Below are positions 4,251-64,000 of a stretch of 64,000 nt of DNA, piece after piece. The DNA is taken from positions 6,831,840-6,895,839 of the forward strand of contig NC_049983.1 in the NCBI RefSeq assembly GCF_000003815.2. The letters run 5' to 3'. Numbering within the stretch: the first letter of the stretch is position 1; each line of letters begins with the position of its first letter. This stretch comes from Branchiostoma floridae (Eukaryota > Chordata > Leptocardii > Amphioxiformes > Branchiostomatidae). The notes below the pieces were generated by a model, which searched no databases, had not been told where the DNA came from, and worked only from the letters and a program-made list of their open reading frames with translations. Both the position numbers and the translations under genes were made by a program.

Positions 4251-5540
4251 AAATTGAGAAAATCAAAAATCCCATGTATTAATTTCCAAATATGTCTGAT
4301 TATTCTGTTTTTCTAAAATGATATTTTTAAAAGTCGGAATGACCTGTTTGATATTTCATGCTGATTGCTTTTTCTCCCTCTTATAGGACTGGTTTTTATT
4401 TTACTATACAATACCGTAGGTATTTTATGGACTGAAATTTTGTTGTGGTTACGTCTCTTCTTCTTCTTCTTCTTCTTTTTCTCCTGGCATATATTCAAAT
4501 GGACTCATCCCCATCGTTTCTGGACCAAACGACCTGAAATTTGGCACAAGGGTAGAGTGGGCCAATACTCCCAGACGAATCTTTTATAAATGCCTTTAAA
4601 AGAAAGTTTTAGTTTTTGGGCCATGTTCAGACCAAAACTGTATAATTTTCTCCGATGACCTTGTATTACCTGAATGACACAAAATTTTGTATAGGTGTGT
4701 ATGGGATATTTATTCAAGGGAGCCAGAAATCCGACATACTTTTGCTGCCAAACACGTAAATGTTTTAGTTGCAACCAACGTTTTAGTATGACTATATTTC
4801 GTAAAGTGTCAGCAATTTTTTTCATTCTAAAAGAATCCTCGAATTCTTAAACAATCCGTTTGCCATGGAAATTTTTGCAATGCGTGCTAGAATCTTTGCT
4901 TTAAGATAAGTACTGCTCTTGAATTGAGTAAATAAGCACAAAAAATCAAAACCATGTCATTGTCTGCTATAGGTACGTAATACCAACGTTTACGGTCGTA
5001 TAACTTGAGGCATCTGTAGAACAAAAATACAACACAATTTCTGGTTGTAAAATAAATGTCTGTTGTTTGCATGTTTGCTCTTATGTGCAAGAATGGTAAT
5101 GGAATACAGACAGAGGTAAGGGTTGCATGTGCTTGTGTCTGTTAATGTGGATATAGAAAGAAAGAATAACTTCATCCCAATCACTTAGGACTTCATCCAT
5201 CTAAAGTGATGTATGCCAAAAACAGATTTGCGAGCATGTATAGCACAGGCATGGTATTTCCATACCAACTTTCAGGTCATTTGGTTCAAATTTCATGGCA
5301 GAGGATCCAGAAACCAAAAAAGGCCAATAAAAAGGTTGAAGTGATGTATGCCAAATCAAAGGCACCCCTATACCAAATTCCAGGTTATCCTGTTGTAATA
5401 CGCTATATTTTTGGAATGTTCCATTTTTTCAAAGGCTGGGACACTTGTGCAGCATTATTGCTTAGGGAGGAAGGTGGGGTGAAATATGCCGTATTTGGTC
5501 ATGAGCAAACGCCAGCCTTTCTAGCTTATTGTTGATTTTA
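4251..5540. other. Intergenic, no gene seen
   Basis: AT-rich DNA upstream of the LRR gene. It holds a (ctt)n microsatellite at about 4457-4482. Short ORFs on both strands are mutually overlapping and show no domain. The LRR promoter should lie here, but no clear element stands out. Confidence 0.5.
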
Positions 5541-43008: not shown

Positions 43009-43784
43009 TTGGCAACGAAATGCCCCTCCTCATGGCAAAAGAAGCACTTTCCTTTGTTGCTAACCGGGGCTTCGACCCGTGGCTTGTTGGAGACCGCGGC
43101 CTCGACTCGTGCCAGGCAAGCTTCCATGCTCCGCATACGAGCTTCCAAACCATCCACGCGAGCCGCCATGGCGTCGGCAGAAGACCTTGCTCCGGCCCCT
43201 TCTCCGGTTTCGCGGTTGTTCACCATGTGCACAGGTGGAGGGGGGTAAGTAGTCGCCTGGCTTTGACGGAGGTTATCTCCAGCAGCGAGCTGGGCTGCTG
43301 CACGACCGGCATCGGCGATGGTTTCCGGACGGGGAAAGATGTCTCCCAACTTCTCAGCTAGCCGGGGTGGTTTCATTCCGGTGACGAAAAAACTAACTCC
43401 CATTTTTTCTCGTTCATCCTTGTCTGTGTTGGGATATCCCGCCAACAACAGTCCCCGGAGACGGACTTCGTAATCGAGAAGGGACTCCGTGCCACCTCTG
43501 GTGAAATGAAACAGTTCGTCCAAAGCCCGCTGTTGCTTTATTCCGGCGCCAAATCTTGCCCTCATGGCCGCGGTCAGCGTGGCGTAGTCGGCCGTCGTTG
43601 TCTCCCCCAAGCTCTCCGCATACTCCAGAGCTGGACCATCCAGGTGCAGCATGAGGTACGAGGCCTGGTTCTCCGGCTTCCACTTCCGAAGCCTGGCCAG
43701 CCGGCCAAACTGCGACAACCACGAATCGAAGTTGGCACTCCGCCCTGAGAATTTGGCCAGAAGAGAATCAACCTTTGCCGCCAT
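42975..43784 (-). CDS. gag: Gag protein of the Ty3/gypsy element
   Basis: 269 residues from the ATG at 43784 (MAAKVDSLLAKFSG). The open frame extends upstream into the LTR (43907), but that start would lie inside LTR sequence, so I prefer the internal ATG. It has a capsid-like region (YLMLHLDGPALEYAES, then a FF.TGMKP segment) and one zinc knuckle, C-x2-C-x4-H-x4-C (CFFCHEEGHFVAKC), near the C terminus. It ends at TAG (42975-42977) immediately after a TTTAAAC heptamer. Confidence 0.92.
   Translation of the reverse strand: MAAKVDSLLAKFSGRSANFDSWLSQFGRLARLRKWKPENQASYLMLHLDGPALEYAESLGETTTADYATLTAAMRARFGAGIKQQRALDELFHFTRGGTESLLDYEVRLRGLLLAGYPNTDKDEREKMGVSFFVTGMKPPRLAEKLGDIFPRPETIADAGRAAAQLAAGDNLRQSQATTYPPPPVHMVNNRETGEGAGARSSADAMAARVDGLEARMRSMEACLARVEAAVSNKPRVEAPVSNKGKCFFCHEEGHFVAKCPHKRQQNLN
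42978..42984 (-). promoter_or_regulatory. Slippery heptamer for -1 gag/pol frameshifting
   Basis: On the minus strand the gag frame reads AAT TTA AAC TAG. TTTAAAC fits X-XXY-YYZ exactly, and a one-base slip back leads into the pol frame (CTA GTC GGC). Pol overlaps gag by 34 nt and is in the -1 frame, as required. I did not establish a downstream pseudoknot. Confidence 0.9.
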
Positions 43785-43869
43785 TTTTCCTAGAACTTGA
43801 ACACAACTAGACAGCTTCCCGCTCGCTCGCGTTGACCGTGTCCTCCGCTGTGCCCACCTCTGACACCAG

Positions 43870-44103
43870 TGTAACAAAGGAGTAGTCCTACCTGTATCTC
43901 TTGGCACTTCTCCTTAGGCCTCGGTGATTCTCCGCTTCTCGTAACTTGTCGCGTAATGGCTAAGTCTAACACTACCTACTCTAAGCGTGCACGCTCAACT
44001 AACTCCTGGAACTTTCTAACATGAACTCAACTCGAACTCAACATCCGGGGTCTTCTCCTTGACCTCTTTGACCCCTTTTCAACTCCTGATTATCCCGGTT
44101 ACA
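43870..44103 (-). repeat. 5' LTR of the Ty3/gypsy element
   Basis: 234 bp, identical on reading to 38610-38843. Flanked outside by gtac (44104-44107). It is followed, in element orientation, by the primer-binding site at about 43853-43868. Confidence 0.95.
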
Positions 44104-45954: not shown

Positions 45955-47888
45955 CTTCTTGATCTTGATCTTGATCTTGATCTTGATCTTGATCTTGATC
46001 TTGATTGGGTACTGGACAACGCCCCTCAGTTGGGGCAAAGCGTCCAGGGGGAGTGCTGCGCCTTAATGTCCCCTGAGGCGTCGGAGAACTGCCTCCTTGA
46101 ACTTTGGAGCGTCTGTGATCTCCGTGACCTCGTACGGTAGAGAGTTCCAATCTCTCACGGTTTGTGGGAAGAAGGAATGTTTGTAGCAGTCTTTGTGAAA
46201 AGGTAGAGCCTTGTAAGAATTTGGGTTTGAGTGTCGCGATTGGCGCGGTACAGGCTTTAGATGAGTTTCGACCGGTAGGGCTACTTTATGGTGTCTTGCT
46301 TTCTGTAAAATTGTTAATCTATTTGCTGTCCTTCTGTTGCGTCAAGTATCCCACCCCAAATCAGAGACAAGTTTGGTGACACTATCATAACTATGATACG
46401 AATTTGTGACAAATCTGGCCGCTCTTTTTTGAACGGACTCTAACTTAGCAATGTGCTCTTTGTGGTATGGATCCCAGGCAGCGCTGGAATACTCTAAATG
46501 TGGTCTAACAAGGGATGTATATGCATTTGATTTGACTGATTTGGGGCAGTTATAAAGATTGCGTCTCACAAAGCCTAACGTCTTGTTAGCCTTGGAAGCA
46601 CTGTACTGTATGTGTTGTGACCAAGAGAGCTGGTTGTTGAGTGTGACTCCTAAGTATTTGTGGTTGTTAGTCTCGGCTAGAACATGACTTCCTAGTTTGT
46701 AGTCGTAGAGTTTAGGTTTACGTTTGTGGGTATAACGCATAACAAAACATTTGTCCGGGTGTAATGTCATCTGCCATGTGTTTTGCCATGTATCTAATGT
46801 ATTGATGTCCTCTTGTAAGAGGGTGTGATCTCTGTCACTGTTTATCTCCCTGTAAATGACGCAGTCATCCGCAAAGAGACGGATGTTAGAGTTGAGGTTG
46901 TCGGCTAAGTCATTAATGTACACTAAGAACAGTAGTGGTCCGAGCACGGTACCCTGGGGCACTCCAGAGACTACCTCTGCCCACTCTGAGTGCTCTCCCC
47001 CAACTACCACTCTTTGTTTACAATTTTTGAGGAAATTAGATATCCAGTGAAGTACCTTACCCCTAATACCATAATTTTGGAGTTTTAGGAGTAAGCGATC
47101 ATGAGGTACTTTTGTAAGAGGGGTAAAAATACACTGTTTGGAAGAATTTGTTGTATCATTTAAAGCAAGATGTTATGGTTATCATTTTGTCATGTACATG
47201 CTCCGAGAAGCTACAGACAGCCCATCTGGTAACTGTAATTAGTCTGTTATTGTTGTGTGATAACTGTTGACAAGGTGTTATCCTTTGTATTGTTCTTTGA
47301 TGAACTGAAGATGAAAAGAACAACAAAGCCAATAGCAGGTACATGTTATAATTATTACCATATGCATAGCTCGTTCAGTTGTAGACAATGTCTGGATATG
47401 TGTCTGGGATTTTGAAATAAAGAAGCCAGGAGTTGTTGGGTTGGGGACAGTTGGAGCGAGAACAGAACAGAGAGAGGGTCCCAACACACAGCTCCCGTGC
47501 GTGTCAATGGCATGCCCTGTGTCTTGCGTGTGTTTCTTTAGTCCTGTAGTTTAATAGTCCCTCGTGCAGCATTCTAAAGAACCTGGGGTCCACAACATCG
47601 GCCCCACCACTTCTTACACTTTGTCAAAAGCTTTTGCGAAGTCGGTTATAATCATATCTGTTTGCGACCTGGTATCTAAAGAATGGGCTAAGTCAGTTGT
47701 AGTTAAAATAAGTTGGGTTTCACATGAACGCTTTTTCCTAAACCCATGCTGCTTGTCAGATAATATAGAGTATTTGTCAAAATGATCCATCATCTGTGAT
47801 TGCACTATGTGCTCCATAACCTTACTACAAACACATGTGAGAGAAACAGGACGGTAATTTGCAGGATCAGTCCTGTCCCCCTTTTTAT
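45955..47888 (-). pseudogene. 5'-truncated non-LTR retrotransposon (CR1/Jockey-type)
   Basis: RT blocks in order on the minus strand: KKGDRTDPANYRPVSLTC, KQHGFRKKRSCETQL, DFAKAFDKV (47614-47892), then PQGTVLGPLLFLVYINDL, FADDCVIY (catalytic motif), HLEYSSAAWDPY (46342-47010). A shifted frame continues with QTVRDWNSLP and F.EAVLRR to about 46070. The reading frame is broken by a solo LTR (47113-47618) and a frameshift near 46340. The 3' end is a six-base tandem tail (gatctt)n at 45956-46004. No 5' ORF or endonuclease remains. Confidence 0.88.
47113..47618 (+). mobile_element. Solo LTR inserted in the retrotransposon RT
   Basis: 506 bp starting TGTAAGAG and ending CTTACA, flanked by 4 bp copies of cttt (47109-47112 and 47619-47622). 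Removing it with one cttt makes the two halves of the RT motif contiguous in frame. A polyadenylation-like gaaataaag lies at about 47416. Different from the Ty3/gypsy LTR at 38.6 kb. Confidence 0.88.
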
Positions 47889-48654
47889 CCATTGATGAGT
47901 TTGCGAGTTAACCAAGCAGTCCCCGTTTATAACATACAGGATACTTACAGGATCCGTGAATCTGAATTCGAACATTAATATATTCCAAAAGGCAAAGGAG
48001 ATCGTTGACTCTATTATTACTAATATTGTATTAATAACATGGGTTGTCGTAGCCTAACTTCTGTCCAAAATAAAATCAAAATTATTAAATAATAACCCAT
48101 TGAAATGATTGTCATTTGTTTATGGTTGTGTCGAGTTGTTTTCGGTAGTTAAAAGTTGTTTTCGGTTGTTTTCGGTAGTTAAAAGTTGTTTTCGCTTGTT
48201 TTCGGTATTTAGTGAAAGTTGTTTTCGGTTGTTTGCGGTTGTTTTCGGTAATTAGTGAAAGTTGTTTTCGGTTGTTTTCGGTATTTAGTGAAAGTTGTTT
48301 TCGGTTGTTTTCGGTATTTAGTGAAAGTTGTTTTCGGTTGTTTTCGGTTGTTTTCGGTATTTAGTGAGACCCCTAGGGAGGGTTTGCGACAATTTGGACT
48401 TGGAACTAGGGAGGGTTTTGGCAATTTTGGATTGGAACTAGGGAGGGTTTTGGCAATTTTGGATTGGAACTAGGGAGGGTTTGGGGCATTTTGGAGGCGC
48501 CACTGCGTTCCGGACATTGTTATTCAATGTTACCCAACTTTAGAAGCACTCTGTGAACGTGGATGCTTTTAATACGTTTGTCCACCCATATTTCACCACA
48601 CCTCTATATCCATCTACAGGAACATTCTAGAATACAGAGGAAGACACATTCAGC

Positions 48655-51600
48655 ATGTTGCTTGCTGTCAGTGCAGAACCCCACCAGAAACCAGGCATTC
48701 CAACCAAAATGGCCAATGAATTGCCAGGTAAGGATGGAACTTCATTGGAAGTCATACATTTCTTGCCTTAGCTAGAAGGTTTGGGCCTCATGGGGACTTT
48801 TCTTGGAACTGCAAGAGCTCATTATTCTTTGTTTTTAGATATTTAGACTGGTTTTTGTAAGCATTTTTGTGGAATTTCTTGAATCCAATTTATCAATTTC
48901 TTTGTTGTTTGATATGATGTACATCTAGAGAAGATTCCGCCATTTTGTCTGTTTTTTTAAGCACAACGAACACTTCATCTTCTCCCTGCTGTGAAATCAA
49001 AGTCCAGTGAACTTAAATGTATTTACAGTACTGAAGTCATAATTTGTGCTTTAATAATACCTACAGGTGAAGATATGCATCACACCAGCATATTGAAGGG
49101 GATTTGCAGACGGTGCGGACAGCATATCAAGGATCGCCCAATACTCAGTACCAAGTATGCGTCTGAATTTCGGGACCTGTTTGGCATCGATCTTTCCACT
49201 GACAATCCCAACATCCACCCACCAAATATCTGCCACAAGTGCCGGTGCAGGTTTGACTGGTATAAGAAACACCCAAAGAAGGAGACTTATCAACCAGTGA
49301 GATCTCCATATGTGTTCATGCAGCATAGTAATGAGTCATGTGAAATCTGCAATGATCACGCAGCACGTGAAAAGAGTCGCCATCTACCCGTAAAACGAGG
49401 TCGGAAACGCAAAAGGACAGGACATGCGGGTCCAGGTCGAGGAGGAAAGAAGATGGCACAGAAGACAGGTGTGGACACCATTTCTTCTTTCTCATATAGT
49501 CACATGGTACGTACTGTTGACCAATCAGAGGGCCCCATTCTTCCCCATAACCTTAGAGCAGAACGTCCTACAATCTTCCACAGAACATGTTAAAAAGTCT
49601 GGACGTCCCAAAATCATTCGCCAAACTTGTAAGATGTTATGCAAGATGCCAGAAGCTTCCCGCAATAGACATAACAGGACTTTTTTCTGCATACCTGCAC
49701 GGGAGCAGGTAACATTGAAAATTACCTGCACCAGACAAATTTTACAGGCACCAATCTGAATTTAGGAAGTATGGATCATATTAAAATTGGTCAGGAACCA
49801 TTGCTATTTTTTCTTTTATTATACTTTATTGTCATTCTCACATAGGGCTGTTTAGCCACAGTCGACGCTGTAGGGCTGATATCAATTAGGATTTTACCAT
49901 GGTCAATATTGACCAAAGGAGGCCATATAAAAAAAAAACTTTATAGTCATGGTAACAGTCAATACAGCTAATAACATTCCACATGCACCTACATCATAGG
50001 ACATTTATGTATAAAACCCAGTACATGGACCAGTGCAGGTTAGGTGCAGGTCACTATGCACATGTACCGCAGCCGTGCGATTAAAACAAAACCAGCTCAC
50101 AAAACTACAATCTCTGCATTTTCCATAAGATTTGAGCACAATGCATAGGCACACCAGATGTTGGTACTCCTTCCACTAATGCCAGTAATTGTCTTCTAGG
50201 TTATGAATGCAGACCGATGAAAAATGATACCGCAGTGAAGAGCATCATTACATTTTGTACACCCACCAAGCATGCTCATTTTCCAGACAGTTTACAAGGT
50301 GGTGGCAATGACTTCACTAGGGACCATATCACTGAAGGGGTAAGTTGTTTTGGAAATTATTATCAAGCCATACCATCACAGAAAATTTAGTAGTTGGAGC
50401 TCTAATAACGTTATTGACTTATGAACATGATGAAAAAAAATTAAAAAGAGACTGTATGTGTGTGCTGTGTGACCTGAGAACAAGTGACCACCAAACCTAA
50501 ACAGTCTCGGCTAGGTGTTTGTGTGTGTTTGTGTGTGTGTGTGTGCGTCTGTGTGTGTGTGCTGTGTGACCTGAGGACAAGTGACCACCAAACCTAAACG
50601 GTCTTGGCCAGCTGACAAAGCACTCCTTGTCACACTGATAAATAGAGACCCCATATGCACATTTATCATGTTGGTCATAAGAGGGATTATACCACGAGTG
50701 CTGAACTCAGCAAATCTAAACCTCTAGGTCCAGAGGCAGGGTTACTTACCCGAAAACAACATACACAACTTGTTTGTTTATTCAGACCCTTTGAGTACAT
50801 AGTGGAAAATAGGGCAGCAAATTTCCTTGCTATTTCAATAGCAGGGAACTATTAGTACATTTCTACAGGAAGGCATTGCTAGCCCTCCTCTTTAAACATG
50901 CTTGCGGTTCATACATGGGATTCACATTTTCGGTCCCATCCAAAAAGCAGGTGCAGCGCCAACCGAGATGCCCAACACAGGAATAAACCAGGGTCACCTT
51001 GTTTTGATTGACAACAGTAAACTGTACATGTAAAGATGCTGCCAGTTTAGCCACAGTGACAGCCTTCAAACACAATTAATCATTTTTTTTAAAATATTGG
51101 TTTTACAGGACAGAAACCCACCAATGACGGGTGTCGTAGGCTTCTCCAAGGAGACGACCCTTGCCGTCTTACCCAGGATGCACATGGAAGAACTACTGTC
51201 CGAGCTGAATCGGAGAAACATTGTGGTGAAACTAGCAGGTGAACACCAGAGGGGTAGGGGTGACTTGGAACATGTGCTGAGAGAGGTCATGACAAGGGAG
51301 TATGAAGTAGAGGAAGGTGAGGGAATGGACACAAGTAACACAAGCTCTACATTCGAGCACAGCTGTAGTAACACTAGCTCAGCATTCCAGCACTGTTCTC
51401 AGCTTAAAGAGGGTGGCAGCAGCGAAGTGCTTTCCAGGCCAAACAATGACCAAGCTTCTTCACAAAATCTTCAAGAACTTTCTCAGTTCACAGAAAATGA
51501 AGGAGCATCTAGTAGGCAAGCACCAGACATCCCCGAGACTTCAAGTACTGAGACAAGCCCTGAACAGGTCCAGGTAAAGAAAGAGCCTAAGATCGAACTT

Positions 51601-54512
51601 GACTTTGAACAGCACACAAACAGTGTTGCAGGTGTGACAGGACCATCTACAACTCAAACACAGTACCCTGGCATTGTATATGGGCCACAGCCTAACTCTG
51701 CAAGTTCACAGCCTAACTCTGCAAGTGCACAGCCTAACTCTGCAAGTTCACAGAACTTGACAGTAAAATTCAAGACAGAGCCTGGTTTGGAAGAAGAGAC
51801 AGAAGATGAACAGCTGCAGGACCTGCGGAGTGAGCTCTGTCCTTCCTCACCTGGACAACTGTCTCAAGAACTGGATAAGGTGGATGTCTCCTTAGAAGAC
51901 GAAGGATGTGGTATGCCTCCATGTGAAGAACCTGTAAAGGTGGGCTAGATACTATTGGGATTCAGACACTACACCCAGGGGTACAGACACTACTGGGGGT
52001 ACGGACACTACTGGGGGTACGGACGCTACCAGGGTATGGAAACCACAGGGGGTACAGGCTCAAGGGGTGTTGGCAATTACAGGGGTAACAAACACTCAAG
52101 GGGTTACAGACTCGACAAGGGGGGTGGACAATACAGGGGTACAGACATTACGGGCGGGATGGACAAAAAGGGGTACAAAAGGGTACAAGCAATTCAGGGG
52201 CTACAAACACTAAAGAGGGTATGGACAATATACAAGAGGTGTGGACTATACAGGCACTACAGGGGAAACTTCAGGGGGTACAGAAACTACAGGTTTATGG
52301 ACACTAATGGGGTGTATGGACACTACAGGGGCACTAACACTTAACTTTAACTGGGTAAGGACACTACAGGGTTACATATACTACAGTTTGTGCAGACAGG
52401 ACAGGGGATACATGGACATTACAGGCTAGGGGGTACAGACATTTCAGGGATAGGGACACTACAGGGGTTATTGACACTCATGTCATAAATGTGGACACTG
52501 CAGGGGTACGGACTGTTTTGGGGGTATGAACACTACAGGGAATACTGACACTTCAGGGGGTACGGAGTATGCCTATGGGGTTACAGACACTTACCTCAGT
52601 TCTTCTATGAAAGAAATATGATATAGATTTCGACTCTTTTTTTTCCAGTTGTGGGAATCACAGGAGCAACAGCTTGACCAGGGAGAACCGGAAACTGAAC
52701 CAGAAGTGCCACAGCGACAAAAGCGTTTTGCTTCAGAATCTCTACATACAAAACAGCTCGTCGAATTACAAGAAGGGAGAGTAGACAGCAGAACAGAAAG
52801 AGCAACTAGATGGGGCACAAAGCTTTTCAAAGGTGGGTACTATACATTTTCCATTGCATTGGATGATGAGCCCAATTATGTCATACCTGTGACGTGAAAA
52901 CGTTCGATACGGGTGTGACAGACCATTGCATGTATCTCACACCAAAGTTCCTCCCGAGCAAGGGGAAACTTCGGTGTGAGATGCCAATGCATTACAGGCG
53001 GATTTTTCAGCAATGCCTCACAGACTTAACTCAACTGTTTGTAGACATTCAAATATCTCTATGGTATTCTGAAAAACTGATAACATCATTATTAACAGCC
53101 TAATATGTACTGAATGAAGTGGAAAATAAATAAGAATTTTAATTGTCATTTCAGAATGGCTACAGTCAAGAGGCCTTGACACAGCATTTGAGGAGCTTCC
53201 ACCTCGAGATCTGGCAGTACTACTGAGACAGTTCTATGGAGAGGCACAGAAAGATGACGGCACTCCATATGCTAAAGCGAGCCATTCATGTCTGAGAGCA
53301 GCTATTCATCGCCATCTCACAGGACCCCCCTTCAACTGCAAGTACAATATTTTTAAAGACAAAGAGTTTCAAGCTGCCAATAAAGTGTATAACAGTGTGA
53401 TCAGGCAGCTTAAGAGAGATGGAATAGACACTAGCAAGAGCTATCCACCCATTCTAGCGTCTGACATCACTAAAATGTTCGAGACCAAAACGTTGAGTGT
53501 CGATAATCCGGTGGCCCTCCAACGACTGGTTTTCTTCTACCTTGCTTTTTTCTTCTGCCAAAGAGGGAGGGAAAATCTGAGGGACTTTAAGGTCGGTGAC
53601 TTTATCCCCAACACCGAAGGAGGAAGGAGGTACTATACTCTCAGGTACTACAAACACCAGAAGGACCACCGTGATCATCTACCCGGCAATGTTCAACCAT
53701 CACCAAGACTGTATGAATCTCCCAATAACACACGCCCCTGCCCAGTCCAGGCGTTTGAGCTGTACTGTAGTAAGCTGCACAACAGATGCCCGTACCTCTT
53801 CCAAAGACCGAGTACGCAGTGGAAGCCAAGTTCACCTGCTCCATGGTACTACGGTCAACCCGTCGGCCAGAACAAGCTTGGTGCGATGATGCGAGATATA
53901 TCCCAAGCTGCAGGGCTGAGCAAAGTCTACACTAACCACAGCATCACGTGTACTGCTATACAGGCTCTGGACAAGGCTGCAAGTTCACAGCCTAACTCTG
54001 CAAGTTCACAGCCTAACTCTGCAAGTTCTCAGCCTAACTCTGCAAGTTCACAGCCTAACTCTGCAACTTCACAGCCTAACTCTGCAACTTCACAGCCTAA
54101 CTCTGCAAGATTACAGCCTAACTCTGCAAGTTCTCAGCCTAACTCTGCAACTTCACAGCCTAACTCTGCAACTTCACAGCCTAACTCTGCAAGATTACAG
54201 CCTAACTCTGCAAGTTTACAGCCTAACTCTGCAAGTTTACAGCCTAACTCTGCAACTTCACAGCCTAACTCTGCAACTTCACAGCCTAACTCTGCGAGTT
54301 CACAGCCTAACTCTGCAAGTTCACAGAATTTGATAGTGAAAATCAAGACAGAGCCTGGACTGGAAGAAGAGACAGAAGATGAACAGCTGCAAGACTTGAG
54401 GAGTGAGCTCTGTCCTTCCTCCCCTGGACAACTGTCTCAAGAACTGGACAAGATGGATGTCTCCTTAGAAGACGAAGGATGTGATATGCCTCCATGTGAA
54501 GAACCTGTGAAG
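48655..54512 (+). CDS. RAG1-N-like zinc region plus Crypton-type recombinase domain, copy 1
   Basis: Exons 48655-48727, 49067-49468, 50200-50339, 51109-51939, 52649-52832 and 53155-54512 join in consistent phases. Exon 2 (CRRCGQHI, FRDLFGIDL, NIHPPNICHKC, CEICNDH, RGRKRKR) parallels the zinc-binding N-terminal region of RAG1 in spacing and order, followed by a nuclear-localisation-like basic run. Exon 4 is Ser/Gln/acid-rich with SUMO-type motifs (VKKEP, FKTEP). Exon 6 is a DUF3504, Crypton-derived tyrosine-recombinase-like domain (EWLQSRGLD.., FCQRGRENLRDF, NTRPCPVQAFELY, NHSI). It stops after QALDKA and runs into PNSASSQ repeats and a copy of the exon 4 end. The end splices to copy 2 exons or is terminal at 54614. 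Likely nuclear, DNA-binding; recombinase activity unlikely. Confidence 0.72.
49067..49468 (+). CDS. Exon 2: RAG1 N-terminal-type zinc region
   Basis: Pairs ICRRCG, ICHKC and CEIC with NIHPP between them mirror the order in vertebrate RAG1 (first Cys pair, an IHP-x2-xCHxC block, then a C-x2-C before a basic run). The frame stays open past the donor to 49593, so a short retained-intron isoform ending there is possible. No RAG1 catalytic core is present in the window. Confidence 0.72.
51955..52590 (+). repeat. Degenerate ggggtac.gacactac minisatellite, intron 4
   Basis: Short variable units around ggggtacagacactacag fill most of the intron. The same motif family forms a homogeneous 69 bp array in the duplicate intron (55.1-56.1 kb). 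Confidence 0.85.
53977..54325 (+). repeat. Coding 21 bp repeat (PNSASSQ), about 17 copies
   Basis: cagcctaactctgcaagttc-type units are repeated with small changes (ata/act for agt). Exon 4 has only three such units near 51700-51750. The array begins exactly where the recombinase-like domain breaks off, so it marks the duplication junction. Confidence 0.92.
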
Positions 54513-55079
54513 GTGGGCTACCAAATAACTTCATTATTAAGAACCTTATGCGATTTGCATGAATCACTATGTGAAAATGTAGTACCTCATGTGATACGCA
54601 CGAATCTTACGTGATGCACACGAACACTATGCGATTTGCACGATCCTCCGAAATCAGCCAATTACTGCTGGGTCCCGTGGCAGGCGGAGCGGGATTTTCA
54701 AAATTGTGGCTTCGGTTTTCAACGACAGAAAAATATGATGTGACGTGCAGAAATGAAGAAACATAAGTATCTCACATGTTTTTGAATATGTCTTCATTAT
54801 GGCATACATATCATGGGTAGAAACACTCAGAAACATGCCTTCTCCCAACATAGCGGCAGCGGTCGGTTTGCATAAGGTTTATACAAATCGCATAAGGTTT
54901 GTGCAAATCACATAAGCTTCGTGTGTGTCACATAAGGTTCATACATTTTTGCATCATGATTCATGCAAATCGCATAAGGTTTGTGCGCTTTCACACTGTG
55001 ATTCTTGTGTATCCACATAATGTTCGCACAAATCTCATAGGGTTCATGCAAATGCTTAGGCACCCCTGAATAACACCTG

Positions 55080-56100
55080 GGGGGGTACAGACACTTTGGG
55101 GTTACAGACACTACAATTGCTAGACACGACACGAGTTTAGACATTGCACCTGGGGGTTCAGACAGTGTTGGAGCTACAGATGCCCCAGGCTTGCAGACAC
55201 AACAGGGGTACAGACACTACAGGAGGTACGGACACTATAGTATGGGTTACAGATTCTGCAGGCTCGCAGACACACGAGGGGTACGGACACTACAGGAGGT
55301 ACGGACACTATGGGGTTACAGATGCTGCAGGCTCGCAGACACACGAGGGGTACGGACACTACAGGAGGTACGGACACTATGGGGTTACAGATGCTGCAGG
55401 CTTGCAGGCACAACAGGGGTATGGACACTACAGGAGGTACGGACACTATGGGGTTACAGATGCTGCAGGCTTGCAGACACATGAGGGGTACGGACACTAC
55501 AGGAGGTACGGACACTATGGGGTTACAGATGCTGCAGGCTTGCAGACACATGAGGGGTACGGACACTACAGGAGGTACGGACACTATGGGGTTACAGATG
55601 CTGCAGGCTTGCAGACACACGAGGGGTACGGACACACTGCAGGAGGTACGGACACTATGGGGTTACAGATGCTGCAGGCTTGCAGACACACGAGGGGTAC
55701 GGACACTACAGGAGGTACGGACACTATGGGGTTACAGATGCTGCAGGCTTGCAGACACACGAGGGGTACGGACACTACAGGAGGTACGGACACTATGGGG
55801 TTACAGATGCTGCAGGCTTGCAGACACACGAGGGGTACGGACACTACAGGAGGTACGGACACTATGGGGTTACAGATGCTGCAGGCTTGCAGACACACGA
55901 GGGGTACGGGCAGAAAAGGGGTAACATACAACTTACAGGGGTACAGATACTGCAGGGGGTATGGAGTAGACACTGTAGGATACTGATACTACAGACCCTA
56001 CTGGGGGTATGAACACCACAGGTGATAATGATACCTCAGGGTACGGACACTATTAATAGGGTTACGAACACTACAGTTGGTACAGACACGACATGGGGTA
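55080..56100 (+). repeat. 69 bp minisatellite, about 10 near-identical units
   Basis: ggctcgcag/ggcttgcag landmarks recur every 69 bp (55261, 55330, 55399, 55468, 55537 and on to about 55884). Each unit contains ggtacggacactac twice and ggggttacagatgctgcagg. The 69 bp period (23 codons) leaves several frames open, hence spurious long ORFs on both strands. Confidence 0.92.
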
Positions 56101-56178
56101 CAGATGCTTACCTTAGTTCTATAAAAGATATTTCTGATATAGATTTCGACTCTTTTTTTCCGGTTGTGGGAAACACAG

Positions 56179-58351
56179 GAGCAACAGCTTCACCAGGGAG
56201 CAGCAGAAACTGAACCAGAAGCGGCACAGGGAAGCCAAAAGCGTTTAGCTTCTCTAGATACAAAACAGCTGGATGAATTAGAAGAAGGGAGAGTAGACAG
56301 CAGAACAGAAAGAGCAACTAGATTGGGCACAAAGCTTTTCAAAGGTGGGTATACATTTTCCATTGCATTGGATGATAAGCCCAATTATGTCATACCTGTG
56401 ACGCGAAAACGTTCGATACGGGTGTTCCAGACTGGGCCATAACTTCCGTATCGCACAGGTTCGAAAGGCGTATCACACAGGCTTTCTTTGAGTAAATCGA
56501 ACCATTTCGAATGGGCCGAATACGGCACAGTTGGCAATTGGAATACCTGATTCGGACGTTGGAACATTGCTGTTGCAGCACTTTTTGTTCGAGGGCACCA
56601 AATTTGTTCAACTTCTGGTGCATTTCGCATCAAAACATGGGTTTTCTCAGGTGGGTCGGGCTGATACCTCGGGTGACACGGAATACACCGTGTTGTATTC
56701 TATATATACACAATACATGCACTGTATTTCTATGAATAAAGGTAAATGCAGTTTGTGCTGCATGTTGTTGTATTGTGTTGCACATGTGGACAGACCATTA
56801 CATGTATGTCACCAAAGTTCCTCCCGAGCAAGGGGGAAACTTTGGTTCTCACACCAAAGTTCCTCCCAAGCAAGGGGGAAACTTTGGTTCTCACACCAAA
56901 GTTCCTCCCAAGCAAGGGGGAAACTTTGGTTCTCACACCAAAGTTCCTCCCAAGCAAGGGGGAAACTTCGGTTCTCACACCAAAGTTCCTCCCGAGCAGG
57001 GGGAAAAAGTTCCTCCCAAGCAGGGGGAAACTTTGGTGTGAGATGCAAGTGCATTGCAGGGGGATTTTTCAGCAATGCCTGACTTAACTGTTTGTAGATA
57101 TTCAAATATGTGTATGGTATTATGGAAAACTAATAACATCATTATTAACATCCTAATGTACTGAATGAAGTGGAAAATAACAATTTTGATTGTCATTTCA
57201 GAATGGCTACAGGCAAGAGGCCTTGACACAGCATTTGAGGAGCTTCCACCTCGAGATCTGGCACTGCTACTGAAACAGTTCTATGGAGAGGCACAGAAAG
57301 ACAACGGCACTCCATATGCTAAGGCGAGCTACGCATATCTGAGAGCAGCTATTCATCGCCACCTCACCGGACCCCCCTACAACTGCAAGTACAACATTTT
57401 GAAAAACAAGGAGTTTAAAGCTGCCAATAAAGTGTATATTGGAGTGCTTAAGCAGCTGAAGAGAGATGGACAGGATACTGGCAAGAGCTATCCACCCATC
57501 CTTGCGTCAGACATCAGTAAAATGTTCAAGACCATTTAACGTTGAGTGTTGATAATCCGGTGGCCCTCCAACGACTGGTGTTCTTCTACCTCGCTTTTTA
57601 CTTCTGCCAAAGAGGGAGGGAAAATCTGAGGAATTTTAAGGTTGGTGACTTTATCCCCAACACCGAAGGAGGAAGGAAGTACTACACTCTTAAGAACAAC
57701 GAAAACCAGAAGAACCACCCTGATCGTCTACGTGAAAATCAACCATCACCAAGACTGTATGAATCTCCCAATGACACACGCCCCTGCCCAGTCCAGGCGT
57801 TTGAGCTGTACTGTAGTAAGCTGAGCAAGAAATGCATGTACCTCTTCCAAAGGCCGAATATGCAGTGGAAGCCAGGTTACCATACTGACCAGTGGTACTT
57901 TAGTCAACCTGTCGGCCAGAACAAGCTCGGCGCGATGATGCGAGACATTTCCAAAGCTGCGGGGTTGAGCAAACCTTACACTAACCACAGCATCACCGTT
58001 ACTGCTATAAAGGCTCTGGACAAGGCTGGGTTTGAACCAAGAGTTATAATGAGCCTATCCGGACACAGGACTGAAACGTCAGTCCGTAGGAACATGCGGG
58101 ATTCTGAGGGGAGGCAGAGAGAGAAATGTTCGGATGCGTTAGGAGCTGCACTCGATCCTCTCTCTTCTGACAAGATGGATGACTCTGAGGAGGGATGTAA
58201 GAACACTTTGCAGACTCCAACAGTGCAGCAACAGGTCAACCTGATCCAGGTACATGTGCCCAGGCAGGAGACAGGTCTTGTAACAGTCTACAGTCCATGC
58301 CACATGTTGATACAAACACAATTAACAACTAAAGGAGTTAATGAGCAATAA
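56179..58351 (+). pseudogene. Duplicate exons 5'-6' of the recombinase-like gene, copy 2
   Basis: Exon 5' (56179-56344) has lost the ancestral acceptor: the AG before ttgtggg is GG. The next AG (56177-56178) keeps the frame and drops five codons. Exon 6' (57202 on) is a good match to copy 1 but has two extra bases near 57532, giving TAA at 57537. The remaining frame 57542-58351 encodes the rest of the DUF3504 domain, including the part copy 1 lacks (RVIMSLSGHRTETSVRRN). The HxxR arginine reads Thr (NHSIT) and no tyrosine follows GHRTETS, so classical catalysis looks lost. Overlapping AATAAA signals follow the stop (about 58350-58366). Confidence 0.72.
56805..57040. repeat. About 42 bp hairpin minisatellite, intron 5'
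   Basis: Units of caccaaagttcctcccaagc aagggggaaactttggttct are repeated five to six times. Each unit is itself nearly palindromic (caccaaagtt.. against ..aactttggtg). The copy 1 intron has a single unit at 52940-52985. Confidence 0.9.
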
Positions 58352-58369
58352 ACAATAAACAATAAACAT

Positions 58370-59370
58370 GCCCCAGTAGAACTGAATGCTTCGTAGTCTC
58401 TAGTCCATTTCACATGTTGATACAAACACACATGCCCCAGCAGAACTGAATGCTACTGTAGTCTCTAGTCCATGTCACAGATTGATAGAGACACATATGC
58501 CTCAACATAGGGGACACTTAGTTCAGCTTACAGTGTCACGGGTTGACACACATGCCCTGTCAGAAGGGAACACTTTGTACAGCCTACAGTCTATTAATTG
58601 TCACAGGTTGATAGAGGCACACATGCCCCAGCAGAGGGGAACACTTTGTACAGACTACAGTCCATGTCTTAGGTTGATAGAGACACACATGGCCCTATCA
58701 GAAGGGAACACTTTGTACAGCCTTAAATCTATTAATTGTCACAGGTTGATAGAGGCACACATGCCTCAGCAGAGGGGAACACTTTGTTCAGCCTACAGTC
58801 CATGTCTTAGGTTGATAGAGACACACATGCACAGCAGAGGGAACACTTCGTTCAGCCTACAACCTATGTCACAGGTTGACACACAATCAGAAGGGAACAC
58901 TTTGTACAGGCTGCAGTCCATGTCTTAGGTTGATCATGATAGAGACACACATGAACAGCAGAGGGAACACTTTGTTCAGCCTACAGCCAATGTCACAGGT
59001 TGACACACAATCAAAAGGGAAGACTTTGTACAGTCTACAGTCCATGTCTTAGGCCGATAGACACACACATGCCTCAACAGAGGGGAACACTTTGTTCAGC
59101 CTACAACCTATGTCACAGGTTGACACACAATCAGAAGGGAACTAATACAGTCTACAGTCCATGTCTTAGGCCGATAGACATACACATGCCTCAGCAGAGT
59201 GGAACACTTCATTCATCGTACAGTTCATGTCACAGGTTGACACACATGCCTATCAGAAGGGAACACTTTGTACAGGCTACAGAGCTTGTCATAGGTTGAT
59301 AGAGACACATCCCCCAGCTGACGGGAACACTTCATACTGTGTACAGTCCATGTCACCGGTTGATAGTTTG
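58370..59370. repeat. Diverged 3' minisatellite
   Basis: About ten imperfect units of roughly 70-100 bp, built from tcacaggttgatagagacac, acatgcc.cagcagagggga and acactttgtacagcctacag. It lies just downstream of the gene. ORFs across it have no domain. Confidence 0.85.
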
Positions 59371-60292
59371 TTGAATGGATCGAAATTTTGTTGTTCAAGT
59401 TCACTTGGTCAGTTTGTTGCTGTAATTATATGCAACATTGTTGAAAATATTGGATATGCCAATGTTTTGAAATACTGGAAATCTCGGTTCATAAAGAAAG
59501 TTTATTATCTTCTGGATCAGTAAACAAAAGGACAAATGTAAATTAGACTATATTTGTCAAAAACTATATCTGTCAAGAACCATATTTGTCAAAAAATGGC
59601 AAAATGTGATTACCAACTGCTTACATGTATAGTTATTAAAGGATCTATGGATTTGCAGGAGTTTGTCTCTCTTATATGGGTCTGTTTGTTATTAGGCTAT
59701 ATTATAACATAATGGAACACAGTGTATTACTACCACTACTATATGATGATATTGCTAATGACCTTTCTGTTCCTCAGTGAATATGGAGTCATAAGGCCTT
59801 CATTGTACTCCATTCACTCATGTCTTGGAGTTTTTCTGTTGTTTTAGCAAATGACCAGTCATTGTGCCTTACATTTGTATTCAACTCGGATGGATAATTA
59901 TCCCTTAACGGATGGATAATAAACCATCAATTGTTCGGAAAGTTTGCATATGTTTGACCACTTCCAGAAACATTGAAAATTTGAAGACTGCTCAAATCTG
60001 CTTGCATGTGCAGAAGAGACATCTTGCAGGATGCACAAGAGCTGCAACAGACGGTAACCTCCTGTGCATTCATAATCCATTTTTAATGGAGGTAAAAAGA
60101 ACAAAGAGACACACATAGTGTATAAAAAGACCAGTTTGTTCCAGATCACTTCAGTGTCAGTGATGGAAGATGAGTGGATACTATCAGAAACGTCTGACCG
60201 TTTCCAGAATAATATCCAGTTGCTTGAGTAACTGCTTTTTTGGCATATCTTATTACCTGGATGTCTAATCTTCATCGACGTAGACACGCACG
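59371..60292. other. Intergenic, nothing recognised
   Basis: AT-rich, no exon, RNA gene or repeat family recognised. Confidence 0.45.
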
Positions 60293-60361
60293 CGCACACA
60301 CACACCAACACACACACACCAACACACACACACACACACACATACACGCACACACACACAG
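60293..60361. repeat. (CA)n microsatellite
   Basis: Nearly pure cacacaca tract with a few interruptions. It generates a Cys/Val-rich minus-strand ORF that is not a gene. Confidence 0.92.
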
Positions 60362-62251
60362 AGCTCTTCTGTGAAAACTTGAATGTCACACAAAATAAAG
60401 TACACAAATGATGAGCATCAATTTCATATTGGTAGTCCTTTATGTCCAATTATGACATGCCATGACATAATCTATTTCTTTATTTATTACAGTATATTGA
60501 ATTACCAAATGTTCTGTTGAAAATATCCGCCAGTATTACCTATAAAGCCATAGTATAGTCCTGGAAATCCCCAGACCTTGCCCGTTACGCTGTATATACA
60601 TGCTCACTTGTAGTGTGACTATCTGGACCTGCCATCTGGCAAGCGTTTCCGGAACTCCAATTTCCATTAAGTGAAATTGACGACCTCGTAGTTAAACCAT
60701 ACACATACTCATAGAAGCGTATACGCGTAGCATGCCCAACGAGAAAGAGTTACAGTCTCATTGATGAATTACTCTTAAAAGAGATCCGAGCCAAAAACTG
60801 AACGGCTGCATGGACGCATGTTTTTAGCGGTGAGAAATTCCCTTTTAGCCAGCCGAACTGATATCAAAAGTTAGATTGGTAAAAGCTTGCTTGTAACAGT
60901 TACTGAAGAAATCAGCAGGTAAAGTTTGACAGTTGCGCGCTAGGTCGGAGGTACACAGTCGTGGGTTCTGAGTGGTGCGGTTGTACACTAGCAGGGAAAA
61001 AGTGCCCTTTGTGGGGATTGACTAATTGTAGCTTGTAATTGCTATAAACAACAAACCTATGGATTTTAGTCATTGGCATTTTTTCCATTATATAGAGTAA
61101 ATTGCTTAACATAGAATGAAAAATCTGCTGACATTTCATGTAGCTTCATTATAAACACCAACATTTAAAACACGAATTACAACATAGAAGTCTTTGGGAA
61201 GAAGATATTCACCAATAAGACCCTAATCGAACTATATCTTGGTGCATTTACTTTGAACCTTAGAGCCATATGCGTTTTTCTGCTGTTCCTTGTATTCCTA
61301 TAGGGATATTGCTGGTATCTAGTCGGTGAATTCATTATGCACTTTGTTATCTACAATATGTGCAAACACTATAACGGATATGAAAGAAAGTAGATATCAT
61401 TATTGCTGGCTCATAGCCATAACCTCTAAATATAATATATCTATTCTCTCTCTCTCTATATATATATTATATATACATGTATAATCTCTTCTGGATAAAT
61501 CCATCTGGATACATACATATTCACATCTATCGCAACTTAGTTACTTGACACAGTTACTGTTCGAAGTCAGGCAAGTTTAGCTACGAAACCTGCAATGAAA
61601 GCATATCAGGGTGACATCCTTTTTGGCGACGCCTCAGGGGCGAGCCTAATTTTACAACAGTCACAGCTAGTGAGTCCACACATTGTCAGTCACGTACTAG
61701 TATTTATTTCCCTTTTGCTCATGGTTCCTCTTCATGGCACAGCTAACCACTTCTAGGGCGGAGATCAGTAATACACGCCTGCGCCTGGGGTCCATTTTAG
61801 CCTAAAAACAACAACAACAATGTTCTATCTAAGACTTGTTGGTTCCCTTCTCGTAGAAAAAGAGAGAAATTATGTACAGATGAAACAGTACTAGGTATAG
61901 ACTTTTAGATTTGGTAAAAGAAACCACTTAGATTTATGGTCCATTTGTAAGCCTGTTTAAGCCCATTATTTGAAGTGGTGAGTCACTTAATTTCCGTCAT
62001 TGACCAGAAACCAAAATGGCGGCATTTTTTGAAAGTGCGAAATCTTCCACCGTATAGAAATTGTTGAAACTATACCTTTTTGTACACTTGAGATAGCGGA
62101 CTACTATATGGGGTAAGCTGTTCTGACCTGGAATGTTCACGGATAAGATCATGATCATGACACCCCAAGTTGCCTATTTTTACATTGCCGACAAAACATA
62201 TTTTCGTTGATGTACTGTGCCCTCGTGCCTCCAAAGTTACAACGGGTAGCT
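60362..62251. other. Intergenic upstream/downstream of the GPCR
   Basis: No gene recognised. A TA-rich simple tract lies at about 61440-61480. Confidence 0.45.
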
Positions 62252-64000
62252 TTACTCAAAGATATGTTCACCTGCGACCTCCCCGTTTGCGTTTGGAATC
62301 GTCGGTCTTCTTCGAACGCTCTTCATCTTGTACGTTCCGTGATCCGGAACCTCAGTCCGGAACGTTTGAATGAAACCTTTCCGGTTCCGGTAAGAGTCTT
62401 CCGGACGATGCCAGCACGCGCAGCAGATTTTGTAGAAGATCTCGCTGAAGTTAAGACTGAAGAAGCCGTAGATGATGGGGTTTAGTGCGGAGTTGAAGAG
62501 GGCCATGGTCTCGGCGACGACGTAGGCGACCTCGGGAAGACCCTGTCCGGCGTACACATCGTACAAAGTCACGACGAAGTACGGCGTCCACGTGGTCAAG
62601 AAGCCGATCACAATACACAGGGTCATCCGTATGGTCTAGAAAGAAGAAAATGTGTACTGTTTTTTAAATGATAACTTGCATGTACCTAACTGGCTGGTTA
62701 AATCAGTAATATAGCAATGTAATATAGTGATTTTACTGTTAAGTTCAAATTAAGTCTTAAATTTCGTACATGTAGAAACGGTTAGTGAAATGTTTCAATC
62801 TAATGAGTAGCAATATGGTGTTATTTTTATGGTTAGAGTACACCCACCCCCTTTTTACACGTGGAGTGAAACCCACAAGCCTGGCAGCCTGTGACGTCCC
62901 CCGTCTCGGAACCACTACTCAAGACACGTGATCATGAAAAAACTTATACTGCAAGCAATGAGTCATTTTACCCTTGAAGAAGTCTACAACCCGTCAAGCT
63001 AGGATGGTGACTTAGCTGCGACCGAGCGACTTGCCAAATTTCTATAGATTAAGATGAGTCTTCTTTTAAATTTTCTCTCAATTTATACATTTTAGACGAT
63101 ATTTTGATTATGAAGTCAAGAGTTTCGCAAAATCCAATTTAAGCCACAGTGCGTTAACGTTCGCCTTTTAATGGTATAGGGGTGTCTGAGATCTACAGCC
63201 GAAAATGTCTTTTTCTTTCTTTACTTAAAACTGCAATGTACTCCGAACTACGAGTAACTTTACCAACGCAGTGTTACTTTCACGAGTCTTACCTTGACTT
63301 TGGCCTTCATGATCTTCTCATTATCTGAGCGCCGTAGAGCCGACTGGATGTCTGCCTTGCCCGACCCCTCTCGTCCGAGGGTCAGCACAATCCGGATGTA
63401 GCAGTACGTAATAATGACGCCAGGGGCCACCATGACGTAAAACGCCAGCCAGGTGACGTACACCTTCCGTTGCCACTCCGCAGTGTACCCCTTACTCTGG
63501 CACGCGTAGGCCGTATGGCCATTTTCCCTCTGGACTTCTCTTTGCACGAATATCAAGAGTTGCGGGATGGCTAGCATGAAAGCAGCTACCCAGGCGACTG
63601 CGACCATCCTGTGAGCGAGTGTCCGATGTTTGGTGGACATCTGGAGAGGGTTGGTGATGGCCATGTAGCGGTCAATACTCATGGCGGTCAAGATGAAGGT
63701 CGCGCTCGCCAAGGTCACGATCTGACCGTACACTATCAGCTTACAGAGCACAGCTCCCAACACCCATTGGTCAAAAGCCACGAACAAGATCTCCGTAGTC
63801 ATGGTTACGACGCAGACGCAGAGGTCGCCAATCGCAAGGTTTAGGATGAAGATGTTGACGCGGCTGAAGCGGCGTTTTTGCGTCAGTACCGCAATAATAG
63901 TTCCGTTGCCTACAAGTGTTATGAACATGATGATAGCGATAGTGATAACACGCTGTAGAACTGGCGCCGTCCAAATGAATCCCTCGGGTGTAGTAATATT
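62252..64000 (-). CDS. Peptide-type rhodopsin GPCR (partial, two exons)
   Basis: Exon on the minus strand from the window edge to 63293, intron 63292-62636, exon 62635-62252 (stop TAA). The first covers an NIT glycosylation site, TM1 (GNGTIIAVL), TM2 (NLAIGDL), the TM3 Cys (VLCKLIV), DRYMAI, TM4, an extracellular Cys and TM5, ending at KAKVK. The second has TM6 (CIVIGFLTTWTPYFVV), TM7 (ALNPIIYGFFS), a palmitoylation-type CC and a tail. KVK|TIRMTL and WTPY suit the vasopressin/neuropeptide S/GnRH-AKH group; the exact ligand is not determined. The start codon may lie beyond the window. Confidence 0.88.

What the first reader, a model, noticed from the sequence alone, without database searches (positions are those of the whole stretch)
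48655..58351. RAG1 N-terminal zinc region and Crypton-type recombinase domain in one gene
Exon 2 follows the order of cysteine pairs, IHP block and basic run of the RAG1 N-terminal region, and later exons encode a DUF3504 domain, which is derived from Crypton tyrosine recombinases. Two unrelated recombination-system domains joined in one spliced gene, with SUMO-type and acidic regions between, suggests a domesticated transposon-derived regulator. Amphioxus is where ProtoRAG was found, so a RAG1-N fragment in a different context bears on how RAG1 was assembled.
Basis: partly seen in the sequence, partly recalled or inferred. Interest (0 to 1): 0.88.

Follow-up and report, generated by a model that had tools for sequence, protein, structure and literature searches.

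The report
Lancelet gene joining RAG1-type and Crypton domains
A lancelet gene appears to join the zinc-binding, non-cutting front part of the antibody-gene recombinase RAG1 to a dead recombinase domain taken from an unrelated transposon, probably making a nuclear regulator, although the copy read here is partly duplicated and partly broken.

Summary
Exon 2 (49067-49468) encodes the three Cys pairs, IHP block and basic tail of the RAG1 central non-core ('Chapa') domain. Exon 2 alone passes the Pfam RAG1_imp_bd cut-off (25.0 vs 23.3 bits; the full-length model does not); a profile of exon 2 plus three lancelet relatives hits only RAG1 among PDB chains (3 of 3 hits, best 1.5e-12). Downstream exons encode DUF3504, the Crypton-derived tyrosine-recombinase domain (3.5e-14). 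Splice phases join them in one open frame, and an NCBI lancelet protein (LOC144873494) has the same chain, 127 of 131 exon 2 residues identical. The second catalytic Arg and the Tyr are absent. Exon 2 is nearer to other lancelet proteins (43-50% identity) than to RAG1 (26 of 75 residues), so it shows module shuffling rather than a RAG1 precursor. Best reading: a host nuclear DNA-binding or chromatin regulator (function inferred). No transcript was seen, and lancelet gene models are error-prone. My paper searches showed no report of this combination.

The parts
48655..48727 (+). candidate exon 1 (ATG, phase-1 donor GTAAGG)
   Evidence: open and phase-compatible with exon 2, but absent from the homologous NCBI protein P0003, which starts at an ATG within exon 2
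49067..49468 (+). exon 2: RAG1 central non-core (Chapa / RAG1_imp_bd) zinc domain and basic RGRKRKRTGHAGPGRGGKK tail; alternative donor at 49506
   Evidence: PF12560 1.7e-5; profile to RAG1 1.5e-12; shuffle test
   Evidence: AG acceptor, GTAAGT donor, phases 1/0; 43 of 47 residues identical in P0003
51109..51939 (+). exon 3: Ser/acidic linker with SUMO-consensus-type VKKEP and FKTEP and three QPNSAS repeats
   Evidence: 276 of 277 residues identical to P0003; motifs of this kind also in P0007; repeats
52649..52832 (+). exon 4: start of the recombinase N-terminal helical (QRICH1-type) region
   Evidence: PF25561 match at residues 558-627 of the spliced model: 18.9 bits, below the cut-off 30.8; 32.6 in P0003, above it
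53155..54512 (+). exon 5, fused: DUF3504 copy 1 up to ...NHSITCTAIQALDKA (to about 53978), then in frame QPNSA(S/T) repeats and a second exon 3 tail with donor after 54512
   Evidence: PF12012 3.5e-14; 21-bp repeat array 53977-54326; same fusion in P0003
56164..56344 (+). exon 4', duplicate of exon 4; acceptor is ccGG instead of ccAG; in-frame alternative AG gives start 56179
57202..58351 (+). exon 5', duplicate DUF3504 copy 2 with the full C-terminal part, frameshift within 57531-57539, stop at 58349-58351
   Evidence: P0003 copy 2 has no frameshift
58347..58366 (+). three AATAAA poly(A)-signal matches at the stop codon (58347, 58354, 58361)

Best explanation
A host gene of a lancelet encodes one protein made of (a) a RAG1 central-non-core / Chapa zinc module with a strongly basic tail, (b) an acidic, Ser-rich linker with SUMO-acceptor-type motifs, and (c) a Crypton-derived DUF3504 domain that has lost tyrosine-recombinase chemistry. 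Shown: the two homologies, the splice-compatible frame, the absence of the second catalytic Arg and the Tyr (by alignment), and the duplication that split DUF3504 into a C-terminally truncated copy and a second copy that is broken in this sequence. Inferred: the zinc module takes the protein into the nucleus and binds DNA, as the RAG1 domain does; DUF3504 adds DNA or partner binding; SUMO-type motifs recruit corepressors; so it works like ZMYM2, possibly on transposons. Inferred history: the zinc exon was gained by exon shuffling from a Chapa-bearing lancelet element or gene, upstream of an existing DUF3504 gene.
For: Homologies. Same chain in P0003 of another lancelet assembly, with exon 2 127 of 131, exon 3 276 of 277, exon 5 413 of 427 aligned residues identical. 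Paralogue P0007 has exon 2b-3-4-DUF3504 equivalents without the zinc module in the one predicted isoform held, X6. HxxR reads NHSIT, with T against the Arg of XerA and of P0007, and no Tyr lies where XerA and P0007 have one. dN/dS between the duplicated copies: exon 5 0.42 (bootstrap 0.28-0.64), exon 3 tail 0.09, all pooled 0.38 (0.27-0.53). Functions of the relatives: RAG1 residues 87-217 bind two zinc ions, prefer double-stranded DNA and help nuclear localization (PMC3124419, passages); [quoted passage not shown] ZMYM2 forms a SUMO-dependent TRIM28 complex and regulates retrotransposons (PMC10629813, abstract).
Against: No transcript was seen; NCBI models may share the same error, and lancelet domain fusions may reflect prediction errors (PMC4967905, abstract). 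PF12560 is under its cut-off in the full-length model and in P0003. The first Cys pair aligns to RAG1 only weakly on its own (9.2 and 6.4 bits). The zinc module lies at the very start of P0003, where fused predictions are easy. Alignable end pieces of intron 4 differ at only 20 of 257 sites, about 8%, close to exon 5 dN of 0.099, so constraint may be overstated; exon 4 dN/dS is 0.83. Copy 2 is frameshifted with a lost acceptor. Both structure models were too poor to test either fold. RAG1 itself was not returned by the two protein searches with this module.
Confidence: 0.55

Rival explanations
1. Prediction chimera: exon 2 belongs to a separate transcript or to a Chapa-bearing transposon remnant upstream of the DUF3504 gene, and only chance phase compatibility joins them.
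For: Lancelet gene models have high error rates (PMC4967905 abstract). P0007 isoform X6 lacks the module. Exon 2 is closest to a different protein family, P0004-6. Matches to AATAAA or ATTAAA lie between exon 2 and exon 3 at 49780, 50080, 50440 and 50982.
Against: Phase-1 donor to phase-1 acceptor with an open frame through 2b, 3, 4 and 5; the same chain in P0003 of another assembly; no inverted repeats of 16 or more bases found flanking exon 2.
Confidence: 0.17
2. Pseudogene: the locus was a gene but is now decaying after tandem duplication; the protein is no longer functional in this genome.
For: Truncated DUF3504 copy 1; frameshift and acceptor loss in copy 2; copy 2 differs more from P0003 than copy 1 does (exon 4' 46 of 55, exon 5' 103 of 112).
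Against: Exons 1-5 are open over 996 aa and exons 2-5 are nearly identical to P0003; the same fused exon 5 is kept open in P0003; exon 5 and exon 3 tail dN/dS below 1.
Confidence: 0.16
3. A mobile or recently mobile Crypton-like element that has captured a Chapa zinc domain as an extra DNA-binding part.
For: Lancelet paralogue P0007 keeps R, H, R and Y at the expected places; the Haliotis relative P0008 keeps the second Arg and the Tyr, though it has Cys at the first Arg and Gln in the GH position.
Against: The window gene and P0003 lack the second Arg and the Tyr; several spliced exons; inverted repeats found in 46000-60500 are GT/CA runs and pairs within introns; of 3 hits among 67 candidates in the module search, 1 (P0003) has this architecture.
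Confidence: 0.1

Closest known systems
RAG1 central non-core domain (residues 87-217; Chapa domain; Pfam PF12560)
   Same: Three Cys pairs (CxxC, CHxC, CxxC), IHP block, a conserved upstream His, basic tail; best PDB match of the exon 2 profile is RAG1 21wb
   Different: 23 residues shorter between the first two Cys pairs (counted by hand); no RING/ZDD and no RAG1 catalytic core follows; 26 of 75 aligned residues identical
Crypton-derived DUF3504 genes (QRICH1, ZMYM2/3/4, KIAA1958, KCTD1, WOC)
   Same: DUF3504 without a complete catalytic tetrad (second Arg and Tyr lost), with other sequence on its N-terminal side
   Different: The His of HxxR is kept here, while of the six human DUF3504 genes all but KCTD1 lost it; no RAG1-type zinc module is described for them in the PMC3212892 passages seen; DUF3504 is duplicated and split here
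Chapaev / Chapaev3 transposons and N-RAG-TP (Aplysia)
   Same: Carry the RAG1 N-terminal (Chapa) domain outside vertebrate RAG1 (PMC4411706 section 6; PMC8355894 passages)
   Different: Chapaev pairs it with a transposase distantly related to Transib; [quoted passage not shown] here it sits on a tyrosine-recombinase derivative
Lancelet proteins P0004 (LOC144868168), P0005 (LOC144879762), P0006 (LOC118425675)
   Same: N-terminal module 43-50% identical to exon 2, with the same RGRKRK...AGPGRG tail
   Different: Unrelated body of roughly 750-1100 residues with no Pfam transposase match at E up to 5 (DUF6589 0.0073 in 1 of 3)
Lancelet protein P0007 (LOC144913920, isoform X6)
   Same: Exon 2b-3-4-DUF3504 chain, 61% identity over 93% of the searched P0003 region
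   Different: No zinc module in this isoform; single complete DUF3504 that keeps R, H, R, Y

Membership tests
RAG1 central non-core / Chapa domain (PF12560) | Significant profile match to RAG1 | tested here: met
   Exon 2 alone 25.0 bits vs 23.3 cut-off; full-length model 21.9, below; P0003 16.8, below; profile A3 to RAG1 1.5e-12
RAG1 central non-core / Chapa domain (PF12560) | Three Cys pairs and IHP | tested here: met
   The six Cys and HP are invariant in 4 of 4 lancelet modules, the I is V in P0006; aligned to the RAG1 pairs, the first pair weakly
RAG1 central non-core / Chapa domain (PF12560) | Fold of the domain | tested here: inconclusive
   AlphaFold model mean pLDDT 50.5; Foldseek 0 of 40 matches at E 0.001 or less
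RAG1 central non-core / Chapa domain (PF12560) | Binding of two zinc ions | not testable with these tools
   needs protein
RAG1 / RAG1L protein | RAG1 catalytic core and RING/ZDD after the N-terminal region | tested here: not met
   Pfam scan of the full model shows DUF3504 and QRICH1 (below cut-off) besides PF12560, nothing else of RAG1
DUF3504 (Crypton-derived) genes | PF12012 match | tested here: met
   53.6 and 48.2 bits vs cut-off 29.7
DUF3504 (Crypton-derived) genes | Incomplete R-H-R-Y tetrad | tested here: met
   First Arg and the His kept; second Arg is Thr and Tyr absent in the window gene and P0003; PMC3212892 says most of the tetrad is lost in the described genes, here half
Crypton transposon | Intact catalytic tetrad | tested here: not met
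Crypton transposon | Short terminal direct repeats and dispersed copies | not tested
   The own-genome search did not complete
One transcript joining both domains | Spliced RNA covering exons 2 to 5 | not testable with these tools
   Only splice signals and NCBI protein P0003 available

The most novel reading that the evidence does not exclude
The RAG1 central non-core zinc module is a free-moving exon that animals have repeatedly attached to unrelated recombinase or transposase bodies: Transib (RAG1), Chapaev, perhaps the P0004-6 body, and here a Crypton tyrosine recombinase. RAG1 would then be one outcome of a recurrent pairing in which this module gives nuclear entry and chromatin or DNA anchoring to a recombinase, and this gene is a living non-RAG example kept by the host as a regulator, perhaps of transposons.
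Probability: 0.3. Interest if true: 0.75.

Novelty: new variant of a known kind. Interest (0 to 1): 0.52.

Why it matters
[quoted passage not shown] Finding the module on a Crypton-derived domain, and on a third body in P0004-6, does not contradict that sentence if these are host genes, but it shows the module can sit on other bodies and so may have moved by exon shuffling more than once. It also offers a natural protein in which the least understood part of RAG1 can be studied without the RAG1 core.

Tried and rejected
Structure test of exon 2: AlphaFold with 5 aligned sequences gave mean pLDDT 50.5 and Foldseek gave 40 matches, none at E 0.001 or less; these were discarded. Structure of P0007 gave mean pLDDT 35.1 and was not searched. 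A SAP-like look of the start of exon 3 was tested in Pfam and not supported. P0004-6 as Chapaev transposases: no transposase family or PDB chain matched their body, left open. Inverted repeats around the gene: 25 pairs in 46000-60500, all GT/CA runs or pairs within introns, none flanking exon 2. Search for further genome copies: the own-genome search did not complete. PDB matches of DUF3504 copy 2 were weak (best 0.015), and P0007 had 0 PDB matches at E up to 5.

Papers: PMC4411706 passages and section 6; PMC7204232 passages; PMC8355894 passages; PMC3124419 passages; PMC3212892 passages; PMC11844651 passages (52, not used); PMC13319239 passages (79, not used: its RAG1 effector is described there as an E3 ligase and its repression was guide-independent); PMC10629813 abstract and outline; PMC4967905 abstract with the start of the introduction (95). 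Panchin and Moroz (N-RAG-TP) and Huang 2016 (ProtoRAG): not read, known from citations and recall. Kapitonov and Jurka 2005 is not held. Searches behind 'no report seen': (14 of 14 listed; 8 of 306,490; 1 of 1; 14 of 14; 12 of 12; 15 of 56; 14 of 15; 12 of 94), judged by titles and starts of abstracts except for the papers named above; only open-licence papers are held.
Full report
What is there. On the + strand, five exons at 49067-49468 (2), 50200-50339 (2b), 51109-51939 (3), 52649-52832 (4) and 53155-54512 (5, fused) have phase-matched splice signals, followed after a duplication by 56164/56179-56344 (4') and 57202-58351 (5'). With candidate exon 1 (48655-48727), exons 1-2-2b-3-4-5 read 996 residues without a stop. 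Exon 1 fits by phase but is not in the homologous NCBI protein P0003, which starts at an ATG in exon 2.

The RAG1 part. Exon 2 alone matches Pfam RAG1_imp_bd above its cut-off (25.0 vs 23.3 bits), while the full-length model (21.9) and P0003 (16.8) fall below. The proteins nearest to exon 2, P0004, P0005 and P0006, match the family at 9.5e-10, 2.3e-11 and 1.2e-10 and are 43-50% identical to exon 2. A profile of these four modules finds 3 PDB sequences at E up to 10, all RAG1, the best being the 137-residue chain 21wb at 1.5e-12. By the printed alignments, lancelet H5, C13, C16, H50, C55, H56, C58, H86, C91 and C94 fall on RAG1 H102, C110, C113, H170, C175, H176, C178, H206, C210 and C213 (numbering counted by hand). 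The stretch with the first Cys pair aligns weakly by itself (9.2 bits to 21wb, 6.4 to full-length RAG1). Against RAG1 142-246 the local score is 94; 0 of 2000 full shuffles (max 55) and 0 of 2000 shuffles with Cys and His fixed (max 82) reach it. So the similarity is real and is not only cysteine spacing.

The Crypton part. DUF3504 is found in copy 1 (3.5e-14) and copy 2 (1.6e-12), and the end of copy 2 also meets Phage_integrase at 1.8e-4, 21.7 bits, under its cut-off of 27.1. The HxxR box reads NHSIT, with Thr against Arg of XerA, and no Tyr follows (that PDB match is itself weak, E 0.26); P0003 has the same losses, P0007 keeps R, H, R and Y. The window gene is therefore of the dead, DUF3504 kind rather than an active recombinase. 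Catalytic positions rest on alignment, not on a structure: the model of P0007 was too poor.

The duplication. The segment from the QPNSAS repeat of exon 3 to the middle of exon 5 is repeated; exon 5 copy 1 runs in frame from ...ALDKA into 21-bp repeats and a second exon 3 tail. P0003 has the same fusion, so it is not peculiar to this assembly. In the window, copy 2 has a 2-base frameshift against copy 1 and a GG in place of the AG acceptor of exon 4', though an in-frame AG lies 15 bases on. Between copies dN/dS is 0.42 for exon 5 (0.28-0.64), 0.09 for the exon 3 tail, 0.83 for exon 4 and 0.38 pooled (0.27-0.53). Against constraint: the alignable end pieces of intron 4 differ at 20 of 257 sites, so the synonymous rate may be raised. 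Against P0003 the duplicated 3' part has changed more (46 of 55 and, up to the frameshift stop, 103 of 112 identical) than exons 2-5 (127/131, 43/47, 276/277, 59/61, 413/427 with 26 residues of exon 5 unaligned).

What surrounds it in sequence space. The three protein searches returned 3 of 67 candidates (exon 2-2b region), 2 of 20 (P0005 module) and 3 of 1153 (DUF3504 region), the query itself or its homologue counted. One protein, P0003, has both domains. Vertebrate RAG1 was not returned, which shows the limit of their word-based sensitivity. P0007 has the exon 2b-3-4-DUF3504 chain without the zinc module in the one isoform held.

How it most likely works. RAG1 87-217 binds two zinc ions, prefers double-stranded DNA and helps nuclear localization (PMC3124419 passages). 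[quoted passage not shown] ZMYM2, a DUF3504 protein, forms a SUMO-dependent TRIM28 complex and regulates retrotransposons (PMC10629813 abstract). The linker here has VKKEP and FKTEP; P0007 has VKKEP and IKTEP. I therefore infer a nuclear, DNA-binding, SUMO-regulated chromatin factor. None of these steps was shown for this protein.

Against print. Papers holding both RAG1 and DUF3504: 1, the Crypton paper, where RAG1 appears as another domesticated transposon. The Chapa domain in Chapaev transposons, found in lancelet and sea anemone, is known, with the statement that no other known transposable element encodes it (PMC4411706). Searches showed no title or abstract start reporting the combination. 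The strongest caution is that apparent domain novelties in lancelets may come from faulty gene models (PMC4967905 abstract). Without RNA this remains the main open point.

Noticed in passing
window 38887-43029 (-), gag at 42978-43913 (-): Ty3/Gypsy-type pol ORF of 1381 aa with a CW-type zinc finger (PF07496, 2.4e-12) at its C-terminus behind the integrase, where chromoviruses carry a chromodomain; one search showed 8 of 139 papers and no title or abstract start on such a pairing.
   Followed up: partly
P0004, P0005, P0006 (lancelet proteins): A second lancelet protein family carries the RAG1 zinc module on a large body with no assigned transposase domain; only a weak DUF6589 match in 1 of 3.
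   Followed up: partly
window 1983-4262 (-): Leucine-rich-repeat protein ORF of 760 aa (PF13855, 2.3e-63).
   Followed up: no
window 46345-47172 (-): Reverse-transcriptase fragment (PF00078, 1.2e-19) upstream of the gene.
   Followed up: no
window 55175-55909: Tandem array of about 10.6 copies of a 69-bp unit within the intron before exon 4'.
   Followed up: no
window 62255-62635 (-): Fragment of a rhodopsin-type receptor (PF00001, 5.5e-9).
   Followed up: no
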